Source: Solirubrobacterales bacterium (GTDB lineage Bacteria > Actinomycetota > Thermoleophilia > Solirubrobacterales > JACPNS01). From it: a stretch of DNA of 64,000 nt. Within the stretch, counting starts at the first letter, position 1, and the number at the start of each line of letters is the position of its first letter. Both the position numbers and the translations under genes were made by a program. The stretch is from the NCBI GenBank assembly GCA_016185345.1, contig JACPNS010000004.1, positions 1 through 64,000 on the forward strand. Direction: 5' to 3'. Of the stretch, positions 16,223 to 24,096 are shown in pieces. The notes beneath the pieces were generated by a model. The model was not told where the DNA came from, searched no databases, and saw only the letters and a program-made list of their open reading frames with translations.

Positions 16223-16783
16223 TCAGAGGCCTGTGGTGACGGGGCCGGACCGCTCGCGATTGGCCTCGTAGTCGCTGATCGCCTGCTCTTCCTGCAGGGT
16301 GATCGAGATGTCGTCGAGTCCGTGGATCAGGTTGTGGCGGATGCCCTCGTCGATCGAGAACGGGTACTCCTTGCCGCCGGCCTTCACGACCTTGTGTTCG
16401 AGGTCGATCACTGCGTCGCCGGCTGCGCCGATGTCCTTGCAGTCGTCTTCGGGCAAGGTGACGAGCACCATGCCGTTCTTCGAGCAGTTGTTGTAGAAGA
16501 TGTCGGCGAAGCTCGGGGCGATGATTGCGTCGAAGCCGTAGTCGTTCAGCGCCCACGGCGCGTGCTCACGCGAAGAGCCGCAGCCGAAGTTCCGGCCGGT
16601 CACGAGGATCGGGTTGACGGGCAGCTCGAAGTCGGGCTCCTTGCGCCAGTCGTAGAACAGGAACTCGCCAAAGCCCGTGCGCTCGACGCGCTTGAGGAAC
16701 TGCTTGGGGATGATCTGGTCGGTGTCGACGTCGCTGCGGTCAAGCACCGTGACGTTGCCTTCAACGGTTGTAACGGGTTCCAT
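16223..16783 (-). CDS. leuD: 3-isopropylmalate dehydratase small subunit
   Basis: Swivel-domain subunit that works with LeuC to isomerise 2-isopropylmalate to 3-isopropylmalate, and probably citramalate to 3-methylmalate. The 186-aa protein has DTDQIIPKQFLKRV and the substrate loop GRNFGCGSSREHAPWAL. The ATG at 16783 overlaps the leuC stop (TAATG), and GGAG lies just upstream. This is preferred over the ATG at 16795, which would sit further inside leuC. Translationally coupled to leuC. Confidence 0.97.
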   Translation of the reverse strand: MEPVTTVEGNVTVLDRSDVDTDQIIPKQFLKRVERTGFGEFLFYDWRKEPDFELPVNPILVTGRNFGCGSSREHAPWALNDYGFDAIIAPSFADIFYNNCSKNGMVLVTLPEDDCKDIGAAGDAVIDLEHKVVKAGGKEYPFSIDEGIRHNLIHGLDDISITLQEEQAISDYEANRERSGPVTTGL

Positions 16784-18177
16784 TAGTTGCTCCATTCACG
16801 GATGTCGACGAAGTGTCCGGCGACTGCGGCTGCGGCTGCCATCTGAGGGCTGACCAGGTGGGTGCGACCACCACGGCCCTGGCGGCCCTCGAAGTTGCGG
16901 TTGCTGGTGGATGCGCAGCGCTCGCCCGGGTCAAGCGTGTCCGGGTTCATGCCAAGGCACATCGAGCAGCCGGCGCTGCGCCAGTCAAATCCGGCATCGA
17001 TGAAGATCTGATCGAGGCCCTCTTCTTCTGCCTGGATCTTCACCTGGGCACTGCCCGGGACGACCATTGCGCTGACGGTGTCTGCGACCTTGCGGCCCTT
17101 GACGACTTCTGCAGCTGAGCGCAGGTCGCCGATGCGGCTGTTGGTGCAGGAGCCGATGAACACGCGGTCGAGCTTGATCTCCCGGATCGGCGTGCCGGCC
17201 TCGAGTCCCATGTACTCAAGCGCGCGCTCTGCGCCGTCGCGGTCGGTGTCGTTCTCGAATGCGTCCGGGTGGGGCACCTCGTCGGTCACCTGGGTGACCA
17301 TGCTCGGCGTCGTTCCCCAACTGACCTGCGGGGAGATCGTCGAAGCGTCGATCGTGATCTCTTTGTCGAACACGGCCTCGTCATCGGTGCGCAGGTTCTT
17401 CCAGGCGGCGACTGTGTCTCCCCACTCGTCTGCCGATGGGGCGGCCTTGCGACCCTTGACCCACTCGAAGGTGGTCTCGTCGGGAGCGATAAGGCCGGCG
17501 CGCCCGCCGCCTTCGATCGTCATGTTGCACATCGTCATGCGGCCTTCCATGTTCATCTTCTCCACGGGCTCGCCCGCGTACTCGACGACATATCCGACGG
17601 CGCCATCGACGCCCATCTGGCCGATCGTGGCGAGGATCAGGTCCTTCGGGGTGACGCCGAAGCCAAGCTCGCCGGTGTAGTTGATGCGCATCGACTTCGG
17701 CTTGCGCTGCGGAAGCGTCTGCGTGGCGAGCACGTGCTCAACCTCGCTCGTGCCGATCCCGAAGGCCAGCGCGCCGAACGCGCCGTGGGTCGCGGTGTGG
17801 CTGTCGCCGCAGACGATCGTCATGCCCGGCTGGGTGATTCCCATCTCCGGTCCGATCACGTGAACGATGCCCTGGTGCTCAGAGCCGATCGAGTGAACCG
17901 GCACGCCGAACTCAGCGCAGTTGTTCTCGAGCACTTCGATCTGCTTGCGGCTGAGCGCGTCCTTGATCTGGGCGAGAGTCGTTGCGCCGTCAGTCGGGAT
18001 GTTGTGGTCTGCCGTGGCCATCGTGCGATCAGGGCGGCGGACCTTGCGGTCGGCAAGGCGCAGTCCGTCAAACGCTTGCGGCGACGTGACTTCGTGGACC
18101 AGGTGGAGGTCGATGTAGATCAGGCCCTCACTCACTTCGTGGGCGTCCCAGATCTTTTCGAACATCGATTGCGGCAT
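16783..18177 (-). CDS. leuC: 3-isopropylmalate dehydratase large subunit
   Basis: Aconitase-family [4Fe-4S] subunit of isopropylmalate isomerase, 464 aa. The cluster ligands appear in [17 protein letters not shown] and in [12 protein letters not shown]. The N-terminal part contains [18 protein letters not shown] and [26 protein letters not shown] precedes the start at 18177. It lies 42 bp downstream of a cupin-type XRE regulator in the same direction, so the regulator and leuCD may share a transcript. Confidence 0.97.
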
Positions 18178-18219
18178 GGTTCTTTTCCTTTGGTGTTTCG
18201 GTGGGGTCGTGTTTGCGAG

Positions 18220-18846
18220 TCAGCTGCGGCGAAGGCCCGCCGCGGTGACCGCGAGAAAGGTGGTTGCTGACTTGGTCGGGTTTTCGAAGTGGTGCGGGAG
18301 GTCGGCGTCGAACGTGACGGAGTCGCCCTCATTGATCGTGCGGCGTTCGCCATCGATCATCAGATCGAGTGCGCCCTTCTCAACCAGGAGCGTCTCGCGC
18401 GAGCCGGGCTCGTGGATCGGGCTGTCGCCCTCCCCTCCCGTACTTGCGCCCGGATCGAGCGTGTGGACACTGAGCATCACTCGCTGGCCGGGCAGCGGGG
18501 GCGTGACCATTTCGTAGCGGTGGCCCGTTGCTTTGGAGGGACCTTGGCGGCGCTGGTCCTTGGTGACGATCACTACGTGCGCGGCCTCGTCGAGACGTAG
18601 CAACTGGCTCAGCGTGAGATCGAGGCCGCGGGCGATGCGTGCGGCGACGCTCAGCGTCGGGCTCGTCTCCCCTCGCTCGACCTGACTCAGCATCGGCGCG
18701 GAGACGCCGGAGCGTTCGGCCAGATCGCGCAGCGACAGCTGCATCGCCTCGCGCAGCGCTTTGACGCGCTGGCCCACGACGACGGGATCGACCTCGCCGT
18801 GCAGCGGAGCCCCTGATGCGTCAGATTGTTTCTTTGCGACTGCCAT
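18220..18846 (-). CDS. XRE-family regulator with C-terminal cupin domain
   Basis: A 208-aa DNA-binding regulator. An XRE helix-turn-helix lies at about 24-80 (LREAMQLSLRDLAERSGVS, LSQVERGETSPTLS). A cupin_2 sensor domain follows at about 135-205 (PGSRETLLVEKGALDLMI, EGDSVTFDADLPHHFENP). This layout is that of small-molecule-responsive repressors of the PuuR/SutR type. A perfect GTACGT/ACGTAC palindrome 8 bp before its ATG suggests self-regulation. Being directly upstream of leuCD it could control them; the ligand is unknown. Confidence 0.9.
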   Translation of the reverse strand: MAVAKKQSDASGAPLHGEVDPVVVGQRVKALREAMQLSLRDLAERSGVSAPMLSQVERGETSPTLSVAARIARGLDLTLSQLLRLDEAAHVVIVTKDQRRQGPSKATGHRYEMVTPPLPGQRVMLSVHTLDPGASTGGEGDSPIHEPGSRETLLVEKGALDLMIDGERRTINEGDSVTFDADLPHHFENPTKSATTFLAVTAAGLRRS

Positions 18847-18853
18847 TACGATC

Positions 18854-18869
18854 GTACGTTATCACGTAC
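18854..18869. promoter_or_regulatory. Palindromic operator between XRE-cupin gene and GNAT gene
   Basis: GTACGT-TATC-ACGTAC is a perfect 6-bp inverted repeat in the 49-bp divergent space. A further CGTACG occurs at 18880-18885. It overlaps a TGATAAC -10-like box of the regulator gene, as expected for an autoregulatory XRE operator. Assignment to this regulator is by proximity. Confidence 0.55.
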
Positions 18870-18895
18870 AGTTGTCCTGCGTACGCTTCGTGGCC

Positions 18896-19489
18896 ATGTG
18901 GGAAGAACTAACCAAGCCGCTCTCCGGCGAAGTCGTTTCGTTAGTGCCGATCGAAGCCGAACACGAAGACGCACTCTTCGCCGCGCTCGATCACGAAGTG
19001 ATCTGGAAGTGGCTGCCCGTTGCGCGGCCGGACCGTGCGGGCTTCGCCGACGTCTTCGGATTTCTCCTCTCTGAGAACGCCGCGGGCCGGATGGGAACCT
19101 GGGTCAACTTTGCCAAGGACGACGGATCGGCAATCGGTACTTCGAGCTATCTCGCTCTCCGCCCCGAGCACCGGGGACTAGAGATCGGTTGGACGATGCT
19201 CTCCCCTTCCGCCTGGGGGATCGGCGCCAACGTTGAAGCGAAACTTCTAATGCTCGATCACGCTTTTGGAGACCTTGGCGCGCAGCGCGTTGAGTTCAAG
19301 ACCGACGCAAACAACCAGCGCTCACGCGGCGCTCTTGCTGCCTTGCCGGCCGAGTTCGAAGGCGTCTTCCGCAAGCACATGGACACGAACCACGGCGTGC
19401 GCGACTCGGCCTATTACAGCGTGATCGATTCAGAGTGGCCTGATGTGCGGGCCAATCTCGAGACCCGTCTCAAAGAGCGGACTCAATAA
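18896..19489 (+). CDS. GNAT-family N-acetyltransferase (RimJ/RimL type)
   Basis: A 197-aa acetyltransferase of the RimL-like GNAT group: SLVPIEAEHEDALFAAL at the N-terminus, then FAKDDGSAIGTSSYL, EIGWTMLSPSAWGIGANVEA (acetyl-CoA binding region) and NNQRSRGALAAL. The ATG at 18896 begins family-like sequence, and the 45 upstream residues of the open frame are low quality and overlap the divergent XRE gene. The acceptor, a protein N-terminus or small molecule, cannot be told. Its 3' end overlaps the convergent dehydrogenase gene by 20 bp. Confidence 0.88.
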   Translation: MWEELTKPLSGEVVSLVPIEAEHEDALFAALDHEVIWKWLPVARPDRAGFADVFGFLLSENAAGRMGTWVNFAKDDGSAIGTSSYLALRPEHRGLEIGWTMLSPSAWGIGANVEAKLLMLDHAFGDLGAQRVEFKTDANNQRSRGALAALPAEFEGVFRKHMDTNHGVRDSAYYSVIDSEWPDVRANLETRLKERTQ

Positions 19490-20525
19490 GCGAGCGAATG
19501 TCGTCTGCGTTCGCGCCACCCGGTGCGAGTCGCAGCTCGGGCCGTTCGCTGGCTGCGGCGATGATCGGTTCAATTCGTTCGGGCGCGACGCCAAGCTCAG
19601 TCAGCGTCGTGGGGTTGCCCGCAGCGGCACAAGTACGTGCGATCAGAATGGACGGATCCTGCGTGCCCATCTCCTCGCTGACGAGCTGCCAAGTCAGCTC
19701 GTCGCGAACCTTGTAGAACTCGAGCGTGTACGGGAGCATCACGCCGTAGGTCGGGGCGTGCGGCACTTCCGCGATGCGCACGATGGTCTGGCAGATCACG
19801 TGATGGAGCGCGTAGCCCGTGGCGCCGACTGCGTAGCCGGCTTCAATCGCGCCGAGTGAAAGATTGAGTCGGCGCTGACGCTCATCAATCGTGTCGTCGA
19901 GCAGCGAGCGGAAGAGGAGCTTGACGGCGCGGGCACCAGCCAAGCGCGGGACGGCGCTTCCGGTCTCGACAAAGAGTGATTCGACTGCGTGCGAGAGCGC
20001 GTTCATGGCGCTGCCGGTGCGGAGCGACTCGTCCTGTGAGGCCATCAGGTCCGGGATTCCGATCACGATCGCGGGGCGAACAGTCTTCGCCTCGCCAGCG
20101 AAGCCCGCGGGAAGCCTGTGCACGCCAGTCATCGGAGCGCCGGAGAGCGTCGTTTGGATCGCAGCGACCTTCTGGTCATAGGTCCCGGCGATCGCCTTGG
20201 CCGTGTCGATGACCCGGCCGCCGCCCACCGCGACCATCGCGCGATCACCGACTTGCTCGCGGAGGTCGCGAGCCAACTCGGCGACGCCGCCCGGTCCAAC
20301 GGTCACGCGAACTTCGGCAGCCGCGATGGCCTCCCTTCCACCGACCTGCGCTGCGAACTGGTCGAGCGAGCGCTCCGTCACTAGAAGCGCGTACTGCTCC
20401 ATCTTCGCCGCCCGCAGAAAGCCCGGCAGGCTGGCAAGCGCAGAGCCGCCAAATGCGATCAGGCGCTCGCCGTCTTTCCAGACGAAGTCTTCGCGCGATT
20501 GGTCGAGGGCGTCTAGGAGAGTCAC
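19470..20525 (-). CDS. Iron-containing alcohol dehydrogenase family (maleylacetate reductase/glycerol dehydrogenase-like)
   Basis: A 351-aa NAD(P)-dependent metal-containing dehydrogenase. The nucleotide-binding region is VGGGRVIDTAKAIA, and metal-ligand histidines are suggested in NALSHAVESL, YALHHVICQ and VPHAPTYGVMLPY. The last pattern is most like maleylacetate reductases, but no aromatic-degradation genes are nearby, so the substrate is open. I start at the GTG at 20525; the longer frame to 20606 would run through the leuA terminator hairpin. Confidence 0.8.
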   Translation of the reverse strand: MTLLDALDQSREDFVWKDGERLIAFGGSALASLPGFLRAAKMEQYALLVTERSLDQFAAQVGGREAIAAAEVRVTVGPGGVAELARDLREQVGDRAMVAVGGGRVIDTAKAIAGTYDQKVAAIQTTLSGAPMTGVHRLPAGFAGEAKTVRPAIVIGIPDLMASQDESLRTGSAMNALSHAVESLFVETGSAVPRLAGARAVKLLFRSLLDDTIDERQRRLNLSLGAIEAGYAVGATGYALHHVICQTIVRIAEVPHAPTYGVMLPYTLEFYKVRDELTWQLVSEEMGTQDPSILIARTCAAAGNPTTLTELGVAPERIEPIIAAASERPELRLAPGGANADDIRSLIESAL

Positions 20526-20564
20526 GGGGCGAAGACTAATTGTGTTCGCCGAACGATTAGTCCG

Positions 20565-20600
20565 AAAAACGAGAAGGGGCCCGTGCGAGGGCCCCTTCTC
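20565..20600 (-). terminator. Intrinsic terminator after leuA
   Basis: Perfect 12-bp arms GAGAAGGGGCCC (20571-20582) and GGGCCCCTTCTC (20589-20600) with a 6-nt loop are followed on the minus strand by GTTTTT. It lies 80 bp past the leuA stop codon and is the strongest terminator in the window. Confidence 0.9.
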
Positions 20601-20681
20601 ATTCATCTAGAGGTAAGCGTGGAAACGCGCACTCATCTTGATGTGCCTTACATTGCTGGTCTCCGATTATACGGGATCCGC

Positions 20682-22289
20682 TTACGGCGCGACGGGATTG
20701 TTCACAGCAGCCTTAGCCGCACTCTCAGCCTCAGAAACAACCCCACGCCGACGTTCAGCATTGGTCAGCGCACGCGCATAAGCACGCCCACTCGCCCACA
20801 CTGTGTCGGTCGCAACACCTTGACCAGAAGCCTCGCGGCCGTCGATCTCGATGATCACGGATACCTCGCCGATTGAGTCGGGACCAGAAGTCACGGACTG
20901 CACGCGGTACTCATTGAGCACCGGCTTCACTCCAACGACATCATTGATCGCGTCAAACAGCGCCTCGATCGTTCCGTTGCCCGAGCCCTTGCCCTCGACG
21001 AGCTCGCCGGCGGGGTTGGTCATCTTCACGGTTGCGGTCGGCTGGCCCTCAGAAGCGCTGTGCAGCTCGAACTCCTCGAAGATCCAAGCCTTCGAGTCGT
21101 CGCGCATCTCGTCGTTGACGATCGCCTCGAGGTCCATCGCGTTGACTTCCTTCTTGCGGTCCACGATCTCCTTGAAAGCCTTGAAGGCGGCGTTCAGGCG
21201 CTCGCCGTCAATCTCGTAGCCGAGATCAGCCAGCGCGTTCTTCAGCGCGTGTCGGCCGGAGTGCTTGCCCAGGACGAGGTTGTTACCGGTGACGCCAACG
21301 GTCGACGCCTCCATGATCTCGTACGTCTGCGGGTTCTTCAGGACGCCGTCCTGGTGGATCCCCGCTTCGTGGGCGAACGCGTTGCGGCCGATGATCGCCT
21401 TGTTTGGCTGAACGGCGTATCCAGTCATGCGCGAGACCAGGCGGCTTGTGCGCGCGATCTCTTGCGTGTTTGCGCCGGTCCAGAGTCCGCCGATCTTCTC
21501 GCTGCGCGTGCGCAGCAGCATGATGAACTCTTCCAGCGAGGTGTTGCCGGCCCGCTCGCCGATTCCGTTGATCGCGCCTTCAACCTGGCGGGCGCCTGTC
21601 ATCACTCCGGCGAAGGAGTTGGCGACGGCGAGGCCCAGGTCGTCGTGGCAATGCACGGAGACGGTGACGTTGCGCAGGTCGGGCACGCGGTCGTAGAGCG
21701 CCGTGAACATGTCTGCGTACTCGTTGGGGATCGCGTAGCCGGTTGTGTCCGGCACGTTGATCGTCGTTGCGCCTTCGTCGATGGCGATCTGGATGACTTC
21801 AGCCATGAAGTCGATGTCTGAGCGCGAGCCGTCCTCGGGCGAGTACTCGACGTCATCGGTGTAGGACTTGGCGTGCGCGACGGCGGCCTTGACCTGACCC
21901 TTGACGTCCTCGCGCGTCGTCTGCAGCTTGTACTTGATGTGCAGATCGCTTGTGGCGAGGAACGTGTGAATGCGCGGACGCTCGGAATCCTTGATGGCGT
22001 TCCACGCGGCGTCGATGTCCTGGAAGGACGATCGGGCCAGCGCGCAGATCACCGGACCTTCGACGTTGCGGGCGATGGTCTGGACGGCCTCGAAGTCACC
22101 GGGTGAGGTGATCGGGAATCCGGCCTCGATGACATCCACGCCAAGGCGCGAGAGTTGCTGTGCGATCTCCAGCTTCTCGGCAGCGTTGAGCGAGATGCCT
22201 GGAGACTGTTCACCGTCTCGCAGCGTGGTGTCAAAGATCTTGACGCGGTCTTCTGGTTTGCCCGTGGAGGGCGCTACTTCAGTTGCCAT
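20682..22289 (-). CDS. leuA: 2-isopropylmalate synthase
   Basis: First committed step of leucine synthesis: acetyl-CoA plus 2-oxoisovalerate to 2-isopropylmalate. The 535-aa protein has a TIM barrel with DTTLRDGEQSPGISLN and the metal-binding SVHCHDDLGLAVANSFAG. It also has GAINGIGERAGN-type residues and a C-terminal LeuA allosteric domain (leucine feedback site). Its ribosome binding site GAAGAAGGAG precedes the ATG by 8 nt. It is preceded by a 57-nt leucine-rich leader frame and followed by a strong terminator, so it is a single-gene transcript. Confidence 0.97.
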   Translation of the reverse strand: MATEVAPSTGKPEDRVKIFDTTLRDGEQSPGISLNAAEKLEIAQQLSRLGVDVIEAGFPITSPGDFEAVQTIARNVEGPVICALARSSFQDIDAAWNAIKDSERPRIHTFLATSDLHIKYKLQTTREDVKGQVKAAVAHAKSYTDDVEYSPEDGSRSDIDFMAEVIQIAIDEGATTINVPDTTGYAIPNEYADMFTALYDRVPDLRNVTVSVHCHDDLGLAVANSFAGVMTGARQVEGAINGIGERAGNTSLEEFIMLLRTRSEKIGGLWTGANTQEIARTSRLVSRMTGYAVQPNKAIIGRNAFAHEAGIHQDGVLKNPQTYEIMEASTVGVTGNNLVLGKHSGRHALKNALADLGYEIDGERLNAAFKAFKEIVDRKKEVNAMDLEAIVNDEMRDDSKAWIFEEFELHSASEGQPTATVKMTNPAGELVEGKGSGNGTIEALFDAINDVVGVKPVLNEYRVQSVTSGPDSIGEVSVIIEIDGREASGQGVATDTVWASGRAYARALTNAERRRGVVSEAESAAKAAVNNPVAP

Positions 22290-22299
22290 TGGAGCAACT

Positions 22300-22309
22300 C
22301 CTTCTTCTC
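22300..22309 (-). promoter_or_regulatory. leuA ribosome binding site complementary to the leader Leu codons
   Basis: The minus strand GAGAAGAAGG contains most of the leuA Shine-Dalgarno sequence. It is the exact reverse complement of CCTTCTTCTC inside the leader peptide (22398-22407). A second register pairs CTCCTTCT of the leader with AGAAGGAG. Pairing would hide the leuA start. Because both strings are low-complexity, chance matching must be considered. Confidence 0.55.
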
Positions 22310-22376
22310 TCTAAAGGTTCTTTACGTATTCGGTGTGGTGTAGGCCAGCCCTTGATCGGCAGGGCGGCGCGCGCAA

Positions 22377-22433
22377 TTAACTCCCCGAAGGGAGAAGGAG
22401 AAGAAGGTGAAGGGTTGCGCGTGAAAAGTCCAC
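22377..22433 (-). CDS. leuL: Leucine-rich leader peptide of leuA
   Basis: A 19-codon frame: GTG GAC TTT TCA CGC GCA ACC CTT CAC, then five successive Leu codons (CTT CTT CTC CTT CTC), then CCT TCG GGG AGT TAA, giving MDFSRATLHLLLLLPSGS. A TACAAT box lies 6 nt before the GTG, so the mRNA probably starts at or next to the start codon (leaderless). It ends 87 nt before leuA. CGCGCAA in its coding region can pair with TTGCGCG just after its stop, looping out the Leu codons. Leucine-rich leaders that stall ribosomes are established for leu operons; this one is inferred. Confidence 0.75.
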   Translation of the reverse strand: MDFSRATLHLLLLLPSGS

Positions 22434-22439
22434 AGTTCG

Positions 22440-22445
22440 ATTGTA
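22440..22445 (-). promoter_or_regulatory. -10 box of the leuA leader transcript
   Basis: Minus strand TACAAT closely matches the TANNNT -10 consensus. Counting 6-7 nt onward puts the transcription start at the G of the leader GTG (22433). No good -35 hexamer was found at 17 bp, which is common for actinobacterial promoters. Confidence 0.6.
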
Positions 22446-22469
22446 GCCAGCTGAGCCCCAGCAGCGCCC

Positions 22470-22485
22470 CGGGCCGAGAGGCCCG
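22470..22485 (-). terminator. Short GC-rich hairpin after the reverse transcriptase gene
   Basis: CGGGCC-GAGA-GGCCCG forms a perfect 6-bp stem with a 4-nt loop, 10 bp after the reverse transcriptase stop codon and just before the leuA promoter. There is no T-tract, so it may be a weak terminator or an RNA 3' end structure. Confidence 0.4.
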
Positions 22486-22494
22486 CCAGTCACC

Positions 22495-24096
22495 TCACGG
22501 CCAGTGCCGCTTCACGTATAGGCAGGCAAGGCGGTTCCACTCGCCGTCGCCCTCAAACCGACTGAGAAACGAATTCCTCCTCTGCCTTTCCAGATCGTGA
22601 ATGGCGACGATGATCTCGATTTGCTGAGCACTCCCGTCGCACTGCGGATAGAGGTTCAAAAGACGTTCGAGGTCCGCTGGCGTACCGAAGTCACCGAGAG
22701 CTAGCCGCGCAATCCTGCGCATAAACGGATACCGAGCACGACCTTCAAACGCCCAGGTGCGGCATAGATCGAGGATCGCCTCGGGCGGCGACATGCCCGC
22801 CTTGTGAAAGCGGCGGACAATCTCAAACGCCTGGTATGGATAGATACTTGCTTCCACTCCGGCCGCAAACTCTGCAAGACGATCTGCGACGTCCTCTAAC
22901 GCTCCGATTCGCTCTATGTACGTCAAAACTTCGGAGGTTTCCTCGGGCCGGGAGACGAGCAAAGGTAGGCAGTATTCAAGGGCCGTTCGGTTTTGAAGCG
23001 CGGCGAGTCGATTGAGGAGGAAATGAAAGATCGACTTGTCCCACGGCTCACCGTTCACAATGAGTTCCGTGAATGCCGCTTCAAGGACTTCGGGAGAATC
23101 TTTCGGATCAGTAGCAAGCAACTCATCGATTTCGGTCATCGGGTAGTAGGGGCCTTCGTCTGCCGCCGCATCGATCAGTATCTCAACCAAATCGTCGCGC
23201 ACCCGGTCGATCGCGGGCGCTGTGCCGTCGATGATCGCGCGCGCATCCTCGCGTGTGAGGATGCGTGACTTTGCGGATTGGAGGTGAAGCCCTCGATGGC
23301 GGAGAATCGTTGAAAGCTCGACCATCGCCCGTTTGGCTTCCTCTTCCGATCTACAGAAGACTCGAAAGTCATCGACGTACCGAAGGTGCGTGTATCCGGC
23401 GGCCTGCAGCTGTGAGTCAATTTTGGTCAGGTAAAGCTTGACCATCGCATCTGTCGCGGCATGCCCCTGCGGAACACCTCGCAGGTTGTTTGCCCATCGA
23501 TTTAGCGATTTCGAAATCAGGTCCAAGATTTCAGCGTCACATCCTTGAGCGCGCAAATCCGACATCAACATCCCGATGTCGATGTTTTCGTAACACGCGG
23601 TGATGTCCGCCACGACGCAATGCGTGTAATTGCCGACAGGATTCAAGTAGTCGAGGCTACGTGTGCGGAAATCGCTCCAGCCGGAGAAAGCAGGGTCAAG
23701 AATTTCCGCCTCATCCGCCGAAAGCTTGAGCGAGCAATCGATCTCTTCGTTTCCGTCAGTTCCGGTCCGGATCTCATCGAGGATCGAAGCAACACAGGCG
23801 GAATAGACGATTTGATCTTCGATCTCGAGATGCACGCCAGGGCGGATATGGCCCGCGCCCTTCGGCTTTTCGACGATGGTGGACGATTGAGGTTGATAAC
23901 CGCCGTCATCGACTCGGACTCCGAGAGCAGCAATCCACACCTCTTCATCGCACGCAATGAGCCCCGGCTCGATCCGGTAGTGCACGAAATTGCGACCAGG
24001 AATGTCGCGCTTAGCAAGCTTCAGACCAAGCTCAAGGTCGATCTTTTCGGAAATTGGCACGCATTCTCGCTTCGGGTCTCGCGATTTATGAATCAC
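22495..24096 (-). CDS. Reverse transcriptase with C-terminal helical domain (putative defence-type RT)
   Basis: A 533-aa protein with the landmarks of a bacterial reverse transcriptase: VEKPKGAGHIRPGVHLEIED (75-94), motif A VVADITACYENID with catalytic Asp164, LRGVPQGHAATDAMVKLYL (205-223), the catalytic YVDD at 240-243, and GLHLQSAKSRIL (269-280). Residues from about 300 to 533 look all-helical and repeat-like. No maturase X domain, HNH endonuclease or integrase is seen, so it is not an obvious group II intron or retroelement RT. The form recalls the abortive-infection/defence RTs (Abi, DRT and UG groups); I cannot assign the class. Local GC is lower than neighbours. The GTG start at 24096 is tentative; a GTG at residue 13 is possible. 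Confidence 0.85.
   Translation of the reverse strand: MIHKSRDPKRECVPISEKIDLELGLKLAKRDIPGRNFVHYRIEPGLIACDEEVWIAALGVRVDDGGYQPQSSTIVEKPKGAGHIRPGVHLEIEDQIVYSACVASILDEIRTGTDGNEEIDCSLKLSADEAEILDPAFSGWSDFRTRSLDYLNPVGNYTHCVVADITACYENIDIGMLMSDLRAQGCDAEILDLISKSLNRWANNLRGVPQGHAATDAMVKLYLTKIDSQLQAAGYTHLRYVDDFRVFCRSEEEAKRAMVELSTILRHRGLHLQSAKSRILTREDARAIIDGTAPAIDRVRDDLVEILIDAAADEGPYYPMTEIDELLATDPKDSPEVLEAAFTELIVNGEPWDKSIFHFLLNRLAALQNRTALEYCLPLLVSRPEETSEVLTYIERIGALEDVADRLAEFAAGVEASIYPYQAFEIVRRFHKAGMSPPEAILDLCRTWAFEGRARYPFMRRIARLALGDFGTPADLERLLNLYPQCDGSAQQIEIIVAIHDLERQRRNSFLSRFEGDGEWNRLACLYVKRHWP

What the first reader, a model, noticed from the sequence alone, without database searches (positions are those of the whole stretch)
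22300..22445. Leaderless leucine leader peptide that is antisense to the leuA ribosome binding site
Seen: TACAAT box, GTG 6 nt later, an 18-aa frame with five consecutive Leu codons, and a 10-nt perfect complement between those codons (22398-22407) and the leuA Shine-Dalgarno (22300-22309). A second 8-nt register covers AAGGAG fully. A CGCGCAA/TTGCGCG stem can also enclose the Leu codons. Model (inference): with leucine plentiful the ribosome leaves and the CU-rich codons mask the leuA site. When leucine is short, stalled ribosomes keep it open. This differs from terminator-based leu attenuation because no terminator is seen in the leader.
Basis: partly seen in the sequence, partly recalled or inferred. 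Interest (0 to 1): 0.8.

Follow-up and report, generated by a model that had tools for sequence, protein, structure and literature searches.

The report
Leucine-sensing leader that masks leuA
Upstream of a leucine-synthesis gene lies a tiny gene, almost all leucine codons at its core, whose RNA can pair with and hide the start site of the enzyme gene unless a ribosome is stuck on those codons for lack of leucine; the idea was partly described for other Actinobacteria in 2005, but this version is a simpler one that is nearly universal in the Solirubrobacterales.

Summary
On the - strand, TACAAT (22445-22440) is followed 6 nt later by GTG and an 18-aa frame, VDFSRATLHLLLLLPSGS* (22433-22377). 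Its Leu codons (22407-22398) are perfectly complementary over 10 nt to the leuA Shine-Dalgarno region (22309-22300). In the order Solirubrobacterales 136 of 143 leuA upstream regions carry such a leader, usually with a TANNNT box directly before the start, rare CTT codons in the Leu run, and no intrinsic terminator. Thermodynamic modelling supports the mechanism: opening the window's leuA start site costs 17 kcal/mol in free RNA, about 10.5 with a ribosome on a Leu codon, and about 21 with one at the stop codon. The idea is not new. Seliverstov et al. 2005 described the actinobacterial 'LEU element' (Leu-run ORF whose codons pair with the leuA SD), and leaderless LeuL peptides without terminators are published. 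This lineage differs: the LEU pseudoknot was not found; two plain hairpins stand in its place; and the leader can pair with the leuA upstream region along most of its length, not always on the SD itself. Verdict: real and conserved, best read as terminator-free translational attenuation; a new variant of a known kind. No wet evidence; pair-by-pair covariation is inconclusive.

The parts
22440..22445 (-). TACAAT, candidate -10 box, 6 nt before the leader start codon
   Evidence: TANNNT within 16 nt of the leader start in 105/136 relatives against 7% in shuffles and 1% in windows further upstream
22377..22433 (-). Leader ORF, GTG start, VDFSRATLHLLLLLPSGS*, presumably leaderless (leuL)
   Evidence: Leu-run leaders in 136 of 143 leuA upstream regions of the order
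22391..22408 (-). Leu-rich codon stretch (CTT-CTT-CTC-CTT-CTC run); 22407-22398 is the exact complement of 22309-22300
   Evidence: Leu codons in the order's leaders are 34% CTT against 3% in leuA
22381..22394 (-). Hairpin P2, CTCCC-TTCG-GGGAG, at the 3' end of the leader frame
22344..22368 (-). Hairpin P3, GCCGCCCT/AGGGCTGGC; other families have GCGGC/GCCGC here
22298..22309 (-). Purine tract GAGAAGAAGGAG with the leuA Shine-Dalgarno (AAGGAG 22303-22298), complementary to the Leu codons
22282..22297 (-). Small local hairpin (GTTGC/GCAAC) around the leuA start codon, a second possible obstacle to initiation
22370..22421 (-). Alternative stem CGCGCAA (22421-22415) / TTGCGCG (22376-22370) enclosing the Leu codons; would cross the Leu-SD pairing
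   Evidence: genus only
20682..22289 (-). leuA, 2-isopropylmalate synthase (HMGL-like, LeuA_dimer), the controlled gene

Best explanation
A leucine-responsive translational attenuator of leuA. Transcription starts at or within a few bases of the leader start codon (inferred), so the leader is translated as a leaderless or nearly leaderless mRNA. With enough leucyl-tRNA the ribosome reaches the stop codon in hairpin P2 and leaves; the leader RNA (in the window its CTT/CTC run) pairs with the purine-rich leuA Shine-Dalgarno region and leuA translation is low. When charged leucyl-tRNA is short, ribosomes stall on the Leu codons, occupy that strand and free the leuA start site. No intrinsic terminator takes part. 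Shown: the parts, their conservation, codon bias, absence of terminators, complementarity above controls, and the modelled change in opening cost. Inferred: start of transcription, translation of the leader, stalling, and the direction of the leucine response.
For: 136/143 leuA upstream regions in the order have the Leu-run leader; two of the exceptions are cut by contig ends. TANNNT directly upstream in 105/136. Leu codons CTC+CTT 84% in leaders against 47% in leuA, CTT 34% against 3%. Leu run x P3-to-AUG duplex better with own partner than with swapped near relatives: -1.9 kcal/mol, p=1e-5; leader x leuA codons and leader x upstream controls near zero. The global fold contains the 10-bp pairing, z=-2.55. 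Cost of opening the leuA start site in the window: 17.0 free, 10.3-11.0 with the A site on any Leu codon, 20.4-21.0 at the last codon/stop, 17-21 for control masks; mean over 136 relatives about -3 on the run, +1 near the stop. No T run of 5 or more between leader and leuA in 136.
Against: Single-pair covariation is not above slid controls. One of three swap controls (upstream DNA x leuA-side segment) also gave p=0.014. In only 59/136 does the optimal duplex cover the SD hexamer. In the window the SD can also pair locally, so stalling lowers the opening cost only to about 10 kcal/mol and does not raise mean unpaired probability. Seliverstov et al., citing Craster et al. 1999, report that leucine-codon mutations in the S. 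coelicolor leuA leader did not behave as attenuation predicts. Footprint size in the model is assumed.
Confidence: 0.66

Rival explanations
1. The leader region is a structured binding site for a regulatory protein, as Seliverstov et al. proposed for the LEU element (ML1624-like DEAD-box protein); the Leu run is not read as a leucine sensor.
For: PMC1262725 argues this from S. coelicolor mutations and phylogenetic co-occurrence. Hairpins P2 and P3 are almost invariant in the order.
Against: The invariant hairpins can equally serve folding; the Leu run is kept at 3-7 Leu codons with variable length and the frame stays open; the pseudoknot thought to be the binding form is not found here.
Confidence: 0.1
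2. Transcriptional control: stalled or released leader ribosomes decide Rho access or an unusual terminator, and the SD pairing is incidental.
For: Leu leaders in other actinobacterial lineages have terminator-like hairpins with T runs between leader and leuA (L154; L165). The 60-90 nt gap could expose a Rho site.
Against: No terminator-like site on the leuA strand in the window and no T run of 5 or more in 136 relatives; P2/P3 lack U tracts.
Confidence: 0.1
3. The complement is a by-product: CTT/CTC codons chosen to sense one tRNA-Leu isoacceptor are automatically antisense to any GGAG-type Shine-Dalgarno, and the leader acts by some other route.
For: CUY codons necessarily contain anti-SD-like CUCCUU; in the window alone the 10-nt complement has P=0.02 and the duplex energy P=0.065 under synonymous recoding; single-pair covariation inconclusive.
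Against: Own-partner advantage in the balanced swap test for the Leu run (p=1e-5) and extension of pairing into non-Leu leader codons, e.g. L013/L026 and L007.
Confidence: 0.14

Closest known systems
Actinobacterial LEU element upstream of leuA (Seliverstov et al. 2005, PMC1262725)
   Same: Upstream of leuA in Actinobacteria; short ORF with a Leu codon run; base stem formed by Leu codons with the leuA SD; no obvious terminator.
   Different: The LEU pseudoknot between Leu run and SD, which I find as crossing helices in L161, L162 and (weaker) L164, is not found in the window or in 14 of 17 order members tested; two plain hairpins are there instead, and pairing can extend through the rest of the leader. 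Thermoleophilia were not among the genomes of that study.
Leaderless leucine leader peptides LeuL of Streptomyces lividans / leu leaders of Corynebacterium (PMC8079986, PMC5784534, PMC4046766)
   Same: 15-18 aa, Leu run, leaderless transcription mapped in S. lividans, no typical terminator before leuA; RGE-like tail.
   Different: Those papers call it attenuation without a mechanism; the RNA around the run differs.
Poly-cysteine leaderless sORFs of mycobacteria (Canestrari et al. 2020, known here only by citation)
   Same: Leaderless short ORF with a run of the regulated amino acid upstream of the biosynthetic operon.
   Different: Cysteine, different operon; mechanism details not read here (paper not held).
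Inducible translational attenuation of the erm/cat type (own knowledge)
   Same: Ribosome stalling in a leader ORF frees a sequestered downstream ribosome binding site.
   Different: Those sense antibiotics and usually rearrange hairpins; here stalling by codon starvation on the antisense strand itself is proposed.
Terminator-type leu attenuator of Enterobacteria (own knowledge)
   Different: No terminator/antiterminator pair here.

Membership tests
LEU element (actinobacterial leuA) | Located upstream of leuA of an actinobacterium | tested here: met
   leuA by Pfam; relatives are Solirubrobacterales, Actinomycetota
[quoted passage not shown]
   Five consecutive Leu codons; 136/143 relatives
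LEU element (actinobacterial leuA) | Base stem between the Leu codon run and the leuA SD | tested here: met
   10 bp in the window and in the sister species L003; in many other relatives the run faces a segment upstream of the SD
LEU element (actinobacterial leuA) | Conserved pseudoknot between run and SD | tested here: not met
   No crossing helices of >=5 bp in the window or in 14/17 order members; found in L161, L162 and weakly in L164 as positive controls. The paper's figures were not available, so its exact helices could not be compared.
Terminator-type amino-acid attenuator | Intrinsic terminator between leader and structural gene | tested here: not met
Rfam leader families (e.g. Leu leader) | Match to a covariance model | tested here: not met
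   No match at E<=5 in 22100-22700
Translational attenuator | Stalling on the leader changes access to the downstream RBS | tested here: inconclusive
   Supported by a thermodynamic model with an assumed footprint; no experiment
Leaderless leader peptide | Transcription starts at the leader start codon | not testable with these tools
   TANNNT spacing of 6-10 nt in 102/136 is consistent; 5' end mapping needed

The most novel reading that the evidence does not exclude
In the Solirubrobacterales the leuA leader ORF as a whole doubles as the antisense strand of the leuA ribosome binding region: a terminator-free, pseudoknot-free, protein-free leucine sensor in which the position of one leaderless ribosome directly sets access to the leuA start site. 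The same logic, hidden under a pseudoknot, would explain the unsolved LEU element of other Actinobacteria.
Probability: 0.4. Interest if true: 0.62.

Novelty: new variant of a known kind. Interest (0 to 1): 0.47.

Why it matters
How leuA leaders of Actinobacteria work has been open since mutational data from Streptomyces (1999, as cited in PMC1262725) did not fit classical attenuation. This lineage offers a stripped-down version with no terminator and no pseudoknot, in more than 130 genomes, so that a simple ribosome-position model makes direct, quantitative predictions.

Tried and rejected
Rfam scan: nothing. Column-pair mutual information over a 131-sequence alignment: dominated by clade structure and misalignment, not usable. 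RNAalifold on a 38-sequence alignment gave only P2 and P3, no leader/leuA stem, because the leuA-side segment does not align by sequence. Pairwise nearest-neighbour count of compensated base pairs: 16 double compensations against 2-10 in slid controls, but the kept fraction among varied pairs is not higher (0.27 against 0.27-0.36), so single-pair covariation is not claimed. Mean unpaired probability as a measure of access: no gain on stalling in the window because of a local hairpin; opening energy used instead. Phylum-wide search with a P2/P3 model: strong hits only in the order; in the class the hits of G126, G089 and G074 lie just upstream of leuA; most others are chance-level. Reinitiation from the leader: rejected, the stop-to-AUG gap is 87 nt in the window. 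Canestrari 2020 not held.

Full report
What is there. On the - strand TACAAT lies at 22445-22440, a GTG follows after 6 nt (22433-22431), and the frame GTG...TAA (22433-22377) reads VDFSRATLHLLLLLPSGS. The stretch 22407-22398 (CCTTCTTCTC) is the exact reverse complement of 22309-22300 (GAGAAGAAGG), which runs into the leuA Shine-Dalgarno AAGGAG (22303-22298) in front of ATG 22289-22287. The minimum-energy fold of the whole leader contains this 10-bp pairing, a CTCCC-TTCG-GGGAG hairpin (P2) that ends the frame, and a second hairpin (P3) (z=-2.55). The downstream gene is leuA by Pfam (HMGL-like, LeuA_dimer). The only terminator-like site within 22200-22700 is on the other strand.

Is it more than chance? 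For this one sequence the answer is weak: recoding the peptide synonymously with local codon usage yields a 10-nt complement in 2.1% of trials and an equally stable duplex in 6.5%. The reason is that CTY Leu codons are by nature complementary to GGAG-like sites. The comparative evidence is what counts.

Comparative evidence. The genome belongs to the Solirubrobacterales (inferred: a genome of its order, G041, has a contig of the same length, 435968, as a contig of Conexibacter arvalis). Of 143 leuA upstream regions taken from this order, 136 have a leader with a Leu run, typically MSFxLDLRLLLLPLRGE or MTxRxxSLALLLLLPPRGE. Of the seven others, two are cut by the contig end, one has an extended frame, three (genus g31) keep the leader with a degraded Leu run, and one lacks it. 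TANNNT lies within 16 nt of the start in 105/136, 6-10 nt away in 102, against 7% in shuffles and 1% in windows further upstream (my start-codon choice favoured starts with such a box, so this is somewhat inflated). Starts are ATG (114) or GTG (22). Leader Leu codons are 34% CTT and 12% CTG, whereas the following leuA genes use 3% CTT and 49% CTG. In 17-aa leaders the Leu run varies mainly at third positions. No leader region has five consecutive T between stop and leuA, and four have four.

Does the leader pair with the leuA start region? The best duplex between the leader and the stretch from P3 to the leuA AUG averages -28.2 kcal/mol. It weakens to -25.8 when that stretch is taken from near relatives (own better in 97/136, p=7e-9) and to -21.7 when it is shuffled. 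In a balanced test on 68 disjoint neighbour pairs the interaction is -3.7 kcal/mol for the whole leader (p=3e-5), -1.9 for the Leu run (p=1e-5), -1.2 for Leu run x last 20 nt (p=0.006). Controls: leader x leuA codons p=0.61, leader x upstream DNA p=0.77, but upstream DNA x leuA-side segment p=0.014, so the test is not perfectly clean. Counting base pairs one by one did not show clear covariation. The geometry varies. In the window, its sister species and family f4 the Leu run lies on the SD. In most of f3 and f2 the run faces GGAGAA 20-45 nt upstream of the AUG, while earlier leader codons (for example UCGUUCC) face GGAACGAC directly before the AUG. The optimal duplex covers the SD hexamer in 59/136.

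How it most likely works. Masking a ribosome footprint in the partition function gives the cost of opening the leuA start site (-18 to +6). In the window it is 17.0 kcal/mol free, 10.3-11.0 with the A site on any of the Leu codons, 20.4-21.0 at the last codon and stop, and 17-21 with control masks elsewhere. Over all 136 leaders the mean change is about -3 kcal/mol on the run and about +1 near the stop, with controls at +0.8. This is what translational attenuation by codon starvation requires: stalled on Leu = open, finished = closed. A local hairpin around the leuA start remains, so the predicted change is graded. Start of transcription, leader translation, stalling and leucine response are inferred.

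What is already known. Seliverstov, Putzer, Gelfand and Lyubetsky (2005, PMC1262725) described the LEU element of most Actinobacteria: an ORF with a Leu run, a base stem of Leu codons with the leuA SD, and a pseudoknot. They doubted attenuation because of the S. coelicolor mutants of Craster et al. and proposed a protein. Leaderless LeuL without terminator is reported for S. lividans; Leu leaders for C. diphtheriae and C. glutamicum. The locus L164 encodes exactly the S. lividans peptide MRFGLLLLSCRGEGL.

Same or different? I searched for crossing helices of 5 bp or more. L161, L162 and weakly L164 have them (CCGCGACGGG/CCCGUCGCGG with GACCGGC/GCCGGUC in L161), L163 no better than shuffles; the window and 14 of 17 order members in all have none. 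So the element works like a LEU element as far as its parts go, but lacks the pseudoknot that marks the family. I therefore call it a new variant, not a member. In other actinobacterial lineages a Leu leader is followed by terminator-like hairpins with T runs (L154; L165; L064 and L139 by inspection only, the scans did not call them), so transcriptional and translational versions seem to coexist in the phylum.

Verdict. Interest comes from the simplicity of this version, which makes a long-open mechanism testable.

Noticed in passing
window 22495-24096 (-): The gene directly upstream of the leuA leader encodes a reverse transcriptase (RVT_1) best matching the defence-associated class RT_UG21 (PADLOC DRT, E=6e-125, nearly full length); it ends 61 nt before the leader start.
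   Followed up: partly
L042, L049, L260 (genus g31): Leaders in which the Leu run has drifted: MARSAHTIRSILILPLSGE and MARFAQPTISLLFSPLSGE, with the P2 and P3 hairpins apparently kept. A natural test case: a Leu sensor that has lost its run.
   Followed up: no
L154 1425-1444, L165 1385-1399, L064 and L139 upstream of leuA: Other actinobacterial lineages have Leu leaders followed by terminator-like hairpins with T runs, suggesting switching between transcriptional and translational leu attenuation.
   Followed up: partly
L135, L137 (same class, other order): Leu leaders with a different tail (LLGLLLLPxxGEII*) and a hairpin-like stretch followed by a T run before leuA.
   Followed up: no
L055 / L261 (CAMCVN010000001.1, 176665 bases): Record titled 'Bifidobacterium breve MAG' encodes a LeuA and leader of Solirubrobacterales type; its contig length equals that of G246:C1, placed in the window's order. 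The title looks mislabelled.
   Followed up: no
window 16783-20606 (-): Genes following leuA on the same strand: an iron-containing alcohol dehydrogenase-like protein, an XRE/cupin regulator and an aconitase-family gene (leuC-like), i.e. leuA is not directly followed by leuC.
   Followed up: no
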